A DNA stretch of 34,133 bases from Acidimicrobiaceae bacterium (GTDB lineage: Bacteria > Actinomycetota > Acidimicrobiia > Acidimicrobiales > UBA8592): assembly GCA_002720485.1 (NCBI GenBank), contig PBIQ01000040.1, positions 1 through 34,133 of the forward strand, written 5' to 3'. A program made the translations under genes and the position numbers. Below are positions 1,498 to 6,170 of the stretch, one piece after another (within the stretch, counting starts at the first letter, position 1; every line of letters starts with the position of its first letter). The notes beneath the pieces are model-generated. The model searched no databases and was not told the origin of the DNA. It was given only the letters and a program-made list of their open reading frames with translations.

Positions 1498-2121
1498 ATG
1501 GATTTGTTTGAGGCGATGAGTACATGTCGGGCTATGCGTTACTTGAAATCGGATCCTGTGGACCCTGATTTGATTAACAAGGTTGTTACAGCTGCGACAT
1601 GGGCTCCCAGCCCTGGGAATTCTCAAGGACGAGATTTTCTCATAGTGTCGGATGATGCCAAAAAGAAGAAGGTCGGCGATGCGATTGAAACAGCTATGAC
1701 AAGCAGAGTTGCGGCTATGGAGCGCCCTGACAAAACCCATAGGCTTATGCTCGACGGGACAGAACATCTCGTTGCGACATTGAAGAATTGCCCTGTTCTC
1801 ATCTTCATTTGTGGTAAAAAGATCTACCCAGCTCAGGCTCCTCGAGAGTCATTTATTTGGTCATCGATCTATCCTGCAGCCCAGAATTTAATACTCGCAG
1901 CAAGAGCTTTGGGCCTTGGTACTGTTTTTACGACTTTCCAAGGGGCAGCGGAGACTACTATCCGAGAATCTCTTTCAATACCCGACGATGTGTATATTGG
2001 CTGCATGATTCCGTTGGGGTGGCCGGATAAGAAATTCGGTCCATTAAATCGGGAACCGCTGGAGAAAGTTATGCATCATAACCAATGGGAAGGAGACTTG
2101 AGAACTTACCCGCCGGCGTGA
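1498..2121 (+). CDS. Nitroreductase family protein (FMN-dependent)
   Basis: 207 aa, a normal size for the family. The N-terminal DLFEAMSTCRAMRYLKSDPV matches the start of nitroreductase-fold proteins, with the basic residues that contact the FMN phosphate. APSPGNSQGRDFLIV (about 36-50) is the conserved FMN/dimer segment. The C-terminal half has the 'A.QNl.LaA.alGLGt' helix and the 'GCMIPLGWP' strand. Such enzymes bind FMN as dimers and use NAD(P)H (or F420H2 in some actinobacterial relatives) to reduce quinones, nitro compounds or enals; the substrate here is unknown. AGGAGA lies about 8 bases before the ATG and fixes the start. The stop codon is TGA, and the 3' end overlaps the convergent gene by 16 bases. 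It is not the FbiB C-terminal domain, since cofE is elsewhere. Confidence 0.87.
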   Translation: MDLFEAMSTCRAMRYLKSDPVDPDLINKVVTAATWAPSPGNSQGRDFLIVSDDAKKKKVGDAIETAMTSRVAAMERPDKTHRLMLDGTEHLVATLKNCPVLIFICGKKIYPAQAPRESFIWSSIYPAAQNLILAARALGLGTVFTTFQGAAETTIRESLSIPDDVYIGCMIPLGWPDKKFGPLNREPLEKVMHHNQWEGDLRTYPPA

Positions 2122-2843: not shown

Positions 2844-3884
2844 TCACGCTCCTAATTCGGACTTAATACCTTCTGCTAATGCTTCAACGTCTTCTTCTTG
2901 TGTAGAGAAACTTGTCATCCATCTAACCTCATTCTCACCTTCCCATGTGTAAAAGGGCGACCATTCCTGCAGTTTAGGGATAGATTCTTTTGGTAAAGTT
3001 GCAAAGACAGCGTTGGCTTGAGTTGGTTGTGTAATTGTCACTCCGTCAATAGTTGAGATTTTTTCTGCAAGAAGACTAGCCATATCGTTTGCATGGCGGG
3101 CATAGTCCAGCCAACGGTCATCTTCTAGCATTGCGAGAAATTGTGCCGCTATAAACCGCATCTTTGATGGGAGCTGGGCTGACTGCTTTTGGAGATATTC
3201 AACCGCTTCGGATAACTCAGGGTCAAAGACAATAATGGCCTCCCCATATACCATTCCATTCTTCGTTCCCCCGAAGCTCAAAATATCTATACCTACTTCG
3301 GTAGTAAATTCAGCAATATCACAGCCTAGAGAGACCGCTGCGTTCGCTATTCGTGCTCCGTCCATATGAACGCGAAGGCCCGACTCATGAGCTGCATTAG
3401 ATATATTCTTAAGTTCTTCTACGGAGTAGACGGTACCGTATTCAGTTGACTGGGTTACAGAAACAGCACCAGGTTGCACATGGTGGACGATCCCGAGAAC
3501 ACGTAACTGATCTAGAACTTGATCTACTGTAAGCTTCGCATTTGGGCTTGGAATGTCAATTAATTTGCTGCCGAGGAATCTTTCAGGAGCTCCGCATTCA
3601 TCAACGTTTATATGTGATGAATGAGTACATATAACACCTTGCCAAGGGCTAATTAAAGCTTGAAGGCCTACAATATTCGCACCAGTTCCGCCCCATGCAA
3701 GGAACGTTGAAACTTCCTTCCCAAAAAGGGTGTTCATGGCGACTCTTAGGTCACTTGTGTACTTATCATCGCCGTAAGCAATGCTATAGCCTTCATTCAC
3801 ATCGGAGAGAGCTTGGAGAACTTCTGGCGATGCGCCTGAAGCATTATCACTTGCAAATGTACATTTGGGAGGTTCTGGAAGCAT
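2844..3884 (-). CDS. ltaE: Low-specificity L-threonine aldolase family (PLP)
   Basis: 346 aa, fold-type I PLP enzyme of the beta-eliminating lyase/threonine aldolase family, which splits L-(allo-)threonine into glycine and acetaldehyde. ASDNASGASPEVLQAL at 11-26 matches the family N-terminus. HMDGAR (173-178) contains the Asp that contacts the PLP pyridine nitrogen and the Arg of the active site. SFGGTKNG places the Schiff-base lysine at Lys208. The frame ends GIKSELGA then TGA. The start ATG at 3882-3884 leaves the expected short N-terminus. The 172-base gap upstream is a divergent region shared with the reductive-dehalogenase homologue. It could act on phenylserine-type or other beta-hydroxy amino acids; the sequence does not decide. 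Confidence 0.88.
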   Translation of the reverse strand: MLPEPPKCTFASDNASGASPEVLQALSDVNEGYSIAYGDDKYTSDLRVAMNTLFGKEVSTFLAWGGTGANIVGLQALISPWQGVICTHSSHINVDECGAPERFLGSKLIDIPSPNAKLTVDQVLDQLRVLGIVHHVQPGAVSVTQSTEYGTVYSVEELKNISNAAHESGLRVHMDGARIANAAVSLGCDIAEFTTEVGIDILSFGGTKNGMVYGEAIIVFDPELSEAVEYLQKQSAQLPSKMRFIAAQFLAMLEDDRWLDYARHANDMASLLAEKISTIDGVTITQPTQANAVFATLPKESIPKLQEWSPFYTWEGENEVRWMTSFSTQEEDVEALAEGIKSELGA

Positions 3885-4056: not shown

Positions 4057-4671
4057 ATGCACACAGGAAGAAATGACACCGCTAAAAGGAGCTTGACTAG
4101 AAAAGTTATTTCGCAAACTATTGACAGCAGCGATAGCAGTGCTGGATTCATTCTTGAAGACGACTTCGAAGGTTTCTCTCAGGTCGATGATGTCTTCTGC
4201 AGGTCACACTACGATCCAGTGGTAAAGAGTCCGGAGACGCAACGCTTTTACGAAATGTATAGACGCCCGCTTTCTGGATGGCGGGGAGCTGAAGGCTACG
4301 GTCAACATGACTATGCCCTAAGAAATGCATCCTGGCATGTTGCGGATATCTTCGCCGAAATGCATGAGGTAAATGACAGGCGCGATGGCTTTCTTGATCC
4401 TCTTTCCTTGCTTCGAGAGGGGTCAGATAGAGAAATCGCCTTCACCTCACCGGAAGAAGCTTCAAGCGTTGTTAAGCAGGCCGCCCACGCTGTTGGAGCA
4501 GACTTGGTGGGTATAGCGGAGTACGACAGCAGATGGACTTACACTGAGCGTTTTTCGATGAGTAACCTCGACGGAAAACCTAATCCGATGCCAGAAGGCG
4601 TGAAGCACGTAATAGTTATCGGACAAGCTATGGATAAAGAACTCGTAGATACTGCGCCATCCGCATTATAA
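4057..4671 (+). pseudogene. Reductive dehalogenase homologue, N-terminal part (ends at in-frame TAA)
   Basis: 204 codons, then TAA at 4669-4671. The same frame continues without interruption into the downstream piece, so this is the N-terminal half of one roughly 407-codon gene. No twin-arginine signal is visible at the N-terminus, so the product would be cytoplasmic, unlike respiratory RdhA. The middle carries a 'DPVVKSPETQRFYEMY' then 'GWRGAEGYGQ' segment. From about 130 it has the nitroreductase-fold/cobalamin-binding start (AAHAVGADLVGIAEYDSRWTY, VKHVIVIGQAMD) typical of reductive dehalogenases and the related epoxyqueuosine reductase. The split falls in a conserved stretch (TAPSAL before the stop, GSATGMGYS after it). 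If translated alone it would lack all Fe-S ligands. No RdhB-like anchor gene is visible nearby. Confidence 0.8.
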
Positions 4672-4686
4672 GGTTCTGCAACGGGT

Positions 4687-5280
4687 ATGGGGTACTCTCT
4701 GGATGCTCTTGTGCTACTTACGGTCTCACAATTTATTCGTAATCTCGGATACCAAGCTATTCCGACTATGAACGACACTGCTCTGGCAATCCCATATGCC
4801 GTGAAGGCTGGATTGGGAGAATATGGCAAACATGGCCTTGTAATCACTCCAGAATTTGGTTCAAGCGTACGATTTGGAAAAATCTTTACAGACTTACCGC
4901 TTACTATTGACTCCCCTATTAAGTTCGGCGTAGAGGAGATGTGCAACATTTGTGATGCGTGCTCTAAGGCCTGTCCAAGCCGTGCGATTCCCAACAACGA
5001 ACCTTCACTGGTGACATTTAATGTGTCCAACATTTCCGGAGTTAAGAAGTGGACAATAGATGGGGAACGATGCTTTTCCTATTGGGCAAAAATTAATACC
5101 GATTGTGCTGTATGCATTCGCGTCTGCCCTTTCACTCGCGACTACACCAGATTTCTGAACAGGAGATGGCTTCAATTGGCTAATTCTCGCTTTCGTAGAG
5201 TTGCCCTCTATCTTGACAGTAAACAGAAACGTGGCAGAAGAGTAGCAAGTAGAAAATGGTGGGTTCTCAAAGATTCTTAA
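4687..5280 (+). pseudogene. Reductive dehalogenase homologue, C-terminal part with two 4Fe-4S clusters
   Basis: In frame with the preceding piece (open from 4672). Family knowledge for PceA gives active-site Tyr246, Asn272 and Arg305; here Tyr (codon 213 of the joined gene), Asn (239, in MNDTALAIP) and Arg (272, in SSVRFGK) have exactly the same 26 and 33 spacings. The first cluster is CNICDACSKACP (codons 296, 299, 302, 306). The second uses Cys339 and then CAVCIRVCP (350, 353, 357). This supports a cobalamin-dependent reductive dehalogenase fold rather than QueG. The basic C-terminus has no known domain. The end overlaps the convergent ftsX stop by four bases. The ATG at 4687 may simply be an internal Met; no convincing ribosome binding site precedes it, so separate translation is doubtful. 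Confidence 0.82.
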
Positions 5281-6170
5281 ACATCGAGAAAGCGGTATGC
5301 GGCTATAGCGGACCCAACTGAACCCACCAGTGCTCCTACTAGGAAGAGCAGCCCGCCTATTCCCCAAACTTCTCCGCTGCCCACGGCGAAACTTTGCAAA
5401 ATGTTTAGAACGTTTTCGCTAGCTAGCCACTCCTCGAATGCCCGATTCGCACCATATACAGATGCAGTCCCTAAAGCTGCGCCCACCAGACCCTGGAATG
5501 TGCCCTCAAGCATAAAGGGAACAAGAATAAAGGAATTTGACGCGCCTACGAGTTTCATGACCTCAATTTCTCGACGTCGAGCAAAAATAGCCATTCGAAT
5601 AGTGTTCAGAATAAGCAGGAGCCCTGTCCCTAGAAGAATTACTCCTGCGCCAAGAACTATCCAACGAATCACATCTGTTGCTTTTTCGATTTTTTGGATC
5701 TCGTCCGTTGCACGAACAACTTTTTTTACCCCTGGTTTCGTTTCAAAACCCGACGCTACGATCTCTATAGCCGCTGCGCTCAGCTGCTTAGGGATTATTC
5801 GATAAGAAGGCGGGATTATCTCTTTGGTAACTAACTGAGTGATTTCAGGATTTTCAGGGAAAAAATCTTCATTGAATTCCCTGTAAGACTCTTCCTGGTT
5901 CACGAACCTGTAGCTTTCAATTGCGGCGGATCTTTCAATTTCTTCTTGGACAAGGCCTAGCTGGCTATCTGTGATGTCAGGTTCAAGAAACACGATGAAC
6001 TCGACACCGTCCTGCCATCTATCCGTAGCGTTTGAGACCCCCCGCTGCAAAAGAAGAGCTATCCCTAAAAGGCTTAGCGATACTGCAACAGTAAGAATGG
6101 ACGCAAGGGTAAGCGTTAAATTCCTCCGAAGGTTTCGAAGTGTTTCTCGTGCCATGTAATCTAATCTCAT
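5277..6170 (-). CDS. ftsX: Cell division protein FtsX
   Basis: 297 aa, the permease half of the FtsEX complex, which couples ATP hydrolysis to activation of septal peptidoglycan hydrolases. A short cytoplasmic start (YMARETLRNLRRNLTLTLAS) leads into TM1 at about 20-42. An extracellular loop of about 110 residues follows (VEFIVFLEPDITDSQ onward), then three TM segments at about 170-190, 215-240 and 265-290, the usual FtsX four-TM topology. It ends in AAYRFLDV and TAA. It lies 15 bases downstream of ftsE and is co-transcribed with it. In many actinobacteria smpB follows ftsX; here a convergent unrelated gene abuts instead. Confidence 0.95.
   Translation of the reverse strand: MRLDYMARETLRNLRRNLTLTLASILTVAVSLSLLGIALLLQRGVSNATDRWQDGVEFIVFLEPDITDSQLGLVQEEIERSAAIESYRFVNQEESYREFNEDFFPENPEITQLVTKEIIPPSYRIIPKQLSAAAIEIVASGFETKPGVKKVVRATDEIQKIEKATDVIRWIVLGAGVILLGTGLLLILNTIRMAIFARRREIEVMKLVGASNSFILVPFMLEGTFQGLVGAALGTASVYGANRAFEEWLASENVLNILQSFAVGSGEVWGIGGLLFLVGALVGSVGSAIAAYRFLDV

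What the first reader, a model, noticed from the sequence alone, without database searches (positions are those of the whole stretch)
4057..5280. Cytoplasmic-type reductive dehalogenase homologue in an actinobacterial housekeeping neighbourhood
The joined frame has both RdhA-style 4Fe-4S motifs and a Tyr/Asn/Arg set spaced 26 and 33 residues apart, the same spacing as Tyr246/Asn272/Arg305 of PceA (from memory of that structure). There is no Tat signal and no RdhB-like anchor gene in the window, so it is unlike respiratory dehalogenases and more like the soluble catabolic ones. Finding it beside ftsX in a probably aerobic marine actinobacterium is unusual and could point to turnover of natural organohalogens.
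Basis: partly seen in the sequence, partly recalled or inferred. Interest (0 to 1): 0.75.

Follow-up and report, generated by a model that had tools for sequence, protein, structure and literature searches.

The report
Broken soluble marine reductive dehalogenase gene
A marine actinobacterium carries a recently interrupted copy of a known kind of vitamin-B12 and iron-sulfur enzyme, thought to strip halogens from organic molecules, whose relatives are intact and well conserved in neighbouring species.

Summary
Window 4057-5280 (+) is one reading frame of a reductive dehalogenase homologue (TIGR02486 above cut-off), interrupted once, by TAA at 4669-4671. Both 4Fe-4S motifs are present, and Tyr213/Asn239/Arg272 align residue for residue with Tyr246/Asn272/Arg305 of PceA. 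There is no Tat motif and no membrane segment.

The enzyme is already known: residues and numbering match T7RdhA of marine Acidimicrobiaceae TMED77 (PMC10008544) at 11 of 11 published positions. T7RdhA was expressed and binds a corrinoid and two Fe4S4 clusters; no substrate has been shown. Seven of 17 congeners have intact copies (69-81% identity), six in the same ftsX site. Purifying selection is strong (dN/dS about 0.06). The window copy breaks none of 114 near-invariant positions, so the stop is very recent or an assembly error. Two other congeners keep only remnants, and several have an empty site: the gene is being lost repeatedly. A new, damaged member of a known kind.

The parts
4057..5280 (+). 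rdhA homologue of the T7RdhA type, interrupted by one in-frame stop
   Evidence: TIGR02486 176 bits over cut-off, PF13486; PceA 4UQU E=1.6e-51; intact orthologues 69-81% identical in 7 congeners
4669..4671 (+). in-frame TAA stop at codon 205
   Evidence: all 55 other aligned proteins have Ser or Ala at this position
4693..4695 (+). Tyr213, the proton-donor Tyr by homology (PceA Tyr246)
   Evidence: invariant in 85 family members, PceA, NpRdhA and QueG rows
4771..4773 (+). Asn239 (PceA Asn272)
   Evidence: Asn in 85 of 85 family members and in both PceA types; D/E/H in NpRdhA/BhbA; Val in QueG
4870..4872 (+). Arg272 (PceA Arg305)
   Evidence: Arg in 85 of 85 family members and PceA; Lys in NpRdhA/BhbA; Phe/Tyr in QueG
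4942..4977 (+). first 4Fe-4S motif CNICDACSKACP
   Evidence: sequence and alignment
5071..5130 (+). second 4Fe-4S motif C-x10-C-x2-C-x3-CP
   Evidence: sequence and alignment
5277..6170 (-). ftsX, convergent neighbour overlapping the rdhA end by 4 bp; marks the locus across the genus
   Evidence: FtsX_actino best match 215.6 bits, below the 250 cut-off; synteny
2844..3884 (-). beta-eliminating lyase family gene, the other flank of the site
   Evidence: PF01212 E=2.9e-55; adjacent to ftsX, about 65 bp away, in congeners without rdhA there

Best explanation
The locus is a recently interrupted copy of the soluble, PceA-like corrinoid and [4Fe-4S] reductive dehalogenase already named T7RdhA. Inferred mechanism of the intact enzyme: an unidentified low-potential donor feeds electrons through the two 4Fe-4S clusters to a base-off corrinoid; Co(I) attacks the substrate's carbon-halogen bond; Tyr213 supplies the proton, and Asn239 and Arg272 hold Tyr213 and the leaving group. 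It would act in the cytoplasm of an aerobic cell on natural organohalogens such as bromo- or iodo-phenols, using scavenged corrinoid. Shown: homology, conserved active site, fold, synteny, purifying selection, and (for T7RdhA, by others) binding of corrinoid and clusters. Inferred: substrate, electron donor, reaction. In this genome the product would stop before the active site, so the copy is non-functional unless the stop is an assembly or strain-level artefact.
For: Family scores and PDB hits. Tyr/Asn/Arg plus eight Cys invariant in 85 members. AlphaFold2 model pLDDT 88.5, pTM 0.90, with Foldseek matches PceA E=7e-27 to 3e-24, NpRdhA about 1e-17, QueG 2e-7. Tree: separate from QueG and from NpRdhA/BhbA. 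All 11 residues named in the T7RdhA paper have the same letter and number here, a match confined to the MHTG-start subclade. Intact copies in 7 of 17 congeners; synteny; dN/dS 0.06-0.09 and 0 of 114 near-invariant sites broken. Hosts have COX1-family oxidase and B12-domain proteins but no CbiC. A soluble RDase from marine Roseobacter debrominates 2,6-dibromophenol (PMC13101508).
Against: No member of this clade has been shown to dehalogenate anything. A 2024 review states there is no empirical evidence for defluorination by T7RdhA or A6RdhA (PMC11022551). One 'Actinomycetes bacterium' RDase, A0A2E6VL94, of unknown relation to this clade, showed no activity on six organohalides in lysates (PMC13101508). 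No constant gene neighbour points to a substrate or electron donor. T7RdhA's own sequence could not be fetched, so orthology rests on residue numbering.
Confidence: 0.75

Rival explanations
1. The stop is not in the living organism: it is an assembly or sequencing error, or a rare strain variant, and the gene is functional.
For: The joined frame breaks 0 of 114 near-invariant sites, and dN after the stop (0.09-0.11 against congeners) equals that between intact pairs. The genome is a 69%-complete draft in 49 contigs.
Against: Two congeners have independent damage (G011 a 3' remnant, G014 a 5' fragment ending at a TGA), so real decay occurs in this genus. A very recent real stop would look the same.
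Confidence: 0.45
2. The family is a corrinoid/Fe-S reductase that does not dehalogenate, acting on another bond as QueG acts on an epoxide.
For: Stand-alone gene with no fixed neighbour; no activity demonstrated for the clade; patchy distribution.
Against: The Tyr/Asn/Arg set is exactly that of PceA and absent from QueG. The TIGR02486 subfamily cut-off is passed and PceA is the best structural match.
Confidence: 0.2
3. It is QueG, or a replacement for it.
For: TIGR00276 matches weakly (60 bits, cut-off 200).
Against: A separate gene over the QueG cut-off exists in all seven congeners that carry intact rdhA. Val and Phe/Tyr replace Asn and Arg in QueG. Tree and fold separate them.
Confidence: 0.01
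4. The two frames are translated separately, or the stop is read through, and give a working enzyme.
For: An ATG at 4687 opens the second half, 197 aa with the triad and all cluster Cys.
Against: All intact relatives are one chain of about 400 residues. The first half holds conserved pocket and cofactor residues (F47, F64, R89, W93 in PMC10008544). TAA is a normal stop here, and no relative is split.
Confidence: 0.03

Closest known systems
T7RdhA (Acidimicrobiaceae TMED77, PMC10008544) and partial A6RdhA
   Same: Same residues at the same numbers at all 11 published positions (F47, F64, Y65, Y68, R89, W93, Y213, K258, H259, F340, W343); PceA-like; marine Acidimicrobiia
   Different: T7RdhA is intact and was expressed; the window copy has a stop at codon 205
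PceA, tetrachloroethene reductive dehalogenase (4UQU, 8Q4H)
   Same: Tyr/Asn/Arg set with identical spacing, two 4Fe-4S motifs, fold (Foldseek 7e-27 to 3e-24)
   Different: PceA is exported by Tat and anchored by PceB; this one has neither and is about 27% identical
Ros_A3X954, soluble RDase of Roseobacter sp. MED193 (PMC13101508)
   Same: No Tat, marine, PF13486 then two 4Fe-4S motifs whose CxxC starts are 54 residues apart in both
   Different: Different lineage; shown to debrominate 2,6-dibromophenol; sequence not compared here
NpRdhA / BhbA catabolic reductive dehalogenases
   Same: Soluble, corrinoid plus two 4Fe-4S, common Tyr
   Different: Lys instead of Arg272 and D/E/H instead of Asn239; about 700 or 1,070 residues; separate clade
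QueG, epoxyqueuosine reductase
   Same: Shared C-terminal corrinoid/Fe-S architecture
   Different: Lacks the Asn and Arg; separate gene in the same genomes; distant in tree and fold

Membership tests
Reductive dehalogenase RdhA (TIGR02486/PF13486) | Score over curated cut-off | tested here: met
   176 vs 160 bits and 42 vs 24 bits
Reductive dehalogenase RdhA (TIGR02486/PF13486) | Two 4Fe-4S motifs | tested here: met
   8 Cys, invariant in 85 members
Reductive dehalogenase RdhA (TIGR02486/PF13486) | Tyr/Asn/Arg catalytic set as in PceA | tested here: met
   Y213/N239/R272 align with PceA Y246/N272/R305. Side-chain position relative to the corrinoid was not measured here; T7RdhA simulations put Y213 in contact with it
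Reductive dehalogenase RdhA (TIGR02486/PF13486) | Reductive dehalogenation activity | not testable with these tools
   No assay for this clade;
Reductive dehalogenase RdhA (TIGR02486/PF13486) | Intact open frame in this genome | tested here: not met
   TAA at codon 205; so it is filed as an interrupted gene copy of the family, not as a working enzyme
T7RdhA orthologous group | Published residues at the same numbers | tested here: met
   11 of 11; other family branches score 0-3
T7RdhA orthologous group | Direct sequence alignment with T7RdhA | not tested
Respiratory RdhA | Tat signal peptide | tested here: not met
   No RRxFxK, no hydrophobic N-terminus
Respiratory RdhA | Adjacent rdhB anchor gene | tested here: not met
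   Overlaps convergent ftsX; no constant neighbour in 80 related loci
NpRdhA/BhbA catabolic type | Lys in place of the Arg, clade membership | tested here: not met
   Arg272; outside the clade
QueG | TIGR00276 over cut-off | tested here: not met
   60 vs 200 bits; true QueG is a separate gene

The most novel reading that the evidence does not exclude
The T7RdhA clade is an aerobic, open-ocean lineage of PceA-type dehalogenases that works without export, anchor or fused reductase on natural marine organohalogens, with corrinoid taken from outside, and is being lost repeatedly within small-genome hosts.
Probability: 0.4. Interest if true: 0.6.

Novelty: new member of a known kind. Interest (0 to 1): 0.35.

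Why it matters
It gives genomic context to T7RdhA/A6RdhA, proteins discussed as possible PFAS-degrading enzymes: the orthologues belong to small-genome marine Acidimicrobiia with COX1-family oxidase and no corrin-ring synthesis marker, not to anaerobes as the T7RdhA paper assumed. Strong purifying selection says the enzyme has a natural substrate worth finding, most plausibly a marine organohalogen. Repeated loss at one site makes presence and absence testable against environment.

Tried and rejected
Using a Chloroflexota locus as centre for respiratory references: not accepted; plasmid records served instead. Searching IMG/VR for viral copies: none. Constant operon partner: rejected after neighbourhood clustering of 80 loci. 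A nitroreductase as partner: rejected, because it stays beside ftsX in congeners without rdhA there and each genome has 5-9 such genes. QueG identity: rejected. Apparent stops in two relatives (L091, L128): rejected, as they lie in the tblastn extension upstream of the conserved part.

Full report
What is there. Window 4057-5280 on the + strand is a single frame with one TAA at codon 205. It lies between ftsX (convergent, overlapping by 4 bp) and a beta-eliminating lyase gene, in an ftsX-ftsE-prfB-secA-ahcY neighbourhood. The genome is a draft of 1.49 Mb, 69% complete, with no second copy. The length far exceeds chance: 407 codons with one stop against a maximum of 254 in 20 shuffles of the window.

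Family. The joined protein passes the curated cut-offs of TIGR02486 and PF13486. Among solved structures it matches PceA best (E about 1e-51), then NpRdhA (1e-24), then QueG (1e-8). A profile of 56 relatives gives the same order. The AlphaFold2 model is good (pLDDT 88.5, pTM 0.90) and Foldseek ranks PceA (7e-27 to 3e-24), NpRdhA (1e-17) and QueG (2e-7) in that order. TM-scores to PceA are 0.68-0.75 on the query length, with rmsd of 3.6-7.5 A, so the core agrees but parts of the chain are placed differently.

Active site. Tyr213, Asn239 and Arg272 are invariant in 85 family members and match PceA Tyr246, Asn272 and Arg305. NpRdhA/BhbA rows have Lys for the Arg and Asp, Glu or His for the Asn. 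QueG rows have Val and Phe/Tyr. Tyr is shared by all, so it does not discriminate. The tree places the window protein in a well-supported clade with congeners, inside an Acidimicrobiia group, apart from NpRdhA/BhbA (SH-aLRT 100 for their branch) and from QueG. PceA references sit on long branches and their exact order is unsure. I could not measure side-chain distances to the corrinoid; the published T7RdhA simulations put Tyr213 in contact with the cofactor.

Identity with a described protein. The T7RdhA paper names F47, F64, Y65, Y68, R89, W93, Y213, K258, H259, F340 and W343. The window protein has the same letter at every one of those numbers. Only the subclade whose proteins start MHTG or similar matches 10-11 of 11; other branches match 0-3 by their own numbering (some rows of other branches lack their true start, so their low scores partly reflect numbering). 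T7RdhA comes from a Mediterranean MAG called Acidimicrobiaceae TMED77, was expressed in E. coli and binds a corrinoid and two clusters. It is therefore very probably an orthologue of this gene. Its PFOA role rests on docking and simulation only.

Distribution and neighbourhood. Intact orthologues occur in 7 of 17 congeners at 69-81% identity. In six the gene is in the same ftsX-lyase site; in G002 it sits elsewhere, next to a haemolysin-III (PAQR) type gene, and in G001 such a gene accompanies it at the ftsX site. G011 keeps 37 codons of the 3' end at the site; G014 has a 5' fragment of about 57 codons ending in TGA. In G005, G009, G010, G012 and G002 the two flanks are only about 65 bp apart. 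Absence elsewhere cannot be told from draft incompleteness. A scan of GTDB species genomes gave 134 stretches encoding relatives, the best 80 kept, mostly Acidimicrobiia, some labelled Binatota, SUP05-type Gammaproteobacteria, Acidobacteriota and others. Eight of 395 genomes sampled from the class passed the TIGR02486 cut-off, the window's own included. None but the window's own of 396 sampled from the phylum matched the family profile at E<=1e-60. No neighbour is constant over 80 loci.

State of this copy. Pairwise dN/dS among congeners is about 0.06-0.09 where dS could be estimated; dS is near saturation, so these are rough. dN after the stop is not raised in the window copy, and it breaks 0 of 114 near-invariant positions. 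All 55 other aligned proteins have Ser or Ala at position 205. The stop is thus either very recent or not real.

Host. COX1-family oxidase is found in 10 of 11 congeneric genomes examined, including the window's own, so an aerobic life is likely. B12-binding-domain proteins of the sizes expected for MetH and methylmalonyl-CoA mutase are present; CbiC, a corrin-ring synthesis enzyme, is absent from all 11, which suggests uptake of corrinoid. QueG exists separately in all seven carriers of intact rdhA.

Function. The most likely reaction is cytoplasmic reductive dehalogenation, by analogy with PceA chemistry (established knowledge of PceA, residue roles recalled) and with the soluble Roseobacter enzyme that debrominates 2,6-dibromophenol. 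Substrate and electron donor are inferred. An actinomycete RDase tested in that study was inactive on six substrates, which warns against assuming PCE or dibromophenol as substrate.

Verdict. The likeness to NpRdhA/BhbA is wrong, and the novelty is reduced by T7RdhA. It is a new, interrupted member of a known kind.

Noticed in passing
PMC10008544 and PMC11022551: A6RdhA, reported from Acidimicrobium sp. A6, is about 98% identical to marine T7RdhA, whereas species of the window's genus differ from the window copy by 19-31%. Such closeness between a PFAS-study strain and a pelagic MAG deserves a check.
   Followed up: no
L082 822-2285, L090 7704-9170, L102 8583-10139, L124 2472-4061: CobB/CobQ-family genes (corrinoid synthesis; Pfam-checked in L090 and L102) lie within about 6 kb of rdhA in four related loci.
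   Followed up: partly
L059-L062, L064 next to rdhA; L107, L120, L121 downstream; window 1498-2121: Nitroreductase-family genes recur near rdhA in three lineages, but in the window's genus the gene stays without rdhA, so linkage is doubtful.
   Followed up: partly
L052 2488-3204, L054 5255-5911, L027 2466-3122: A haemolysin-III (PAQR) type gene lies directly upstream of rdhA in three congeners (Pfam-checked in L052), at two different genome sites, as if the pair moves together.
   Followed up: partly
G354 (L129 and further contig places): One Acidimicrobiia genome holds several RdhA-like genes, in open frames of about 395, 422, 706 and 735 aa, two of them over the family cut-off.
   Followed up: no
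L110, L113-L115, L122, L126 upstream of rdhA: In MedAcidi-G1-like genomes a sulfatase gene sits just upstream of rdhA on the same strand, 46-161 bp away.
   Followed up: no
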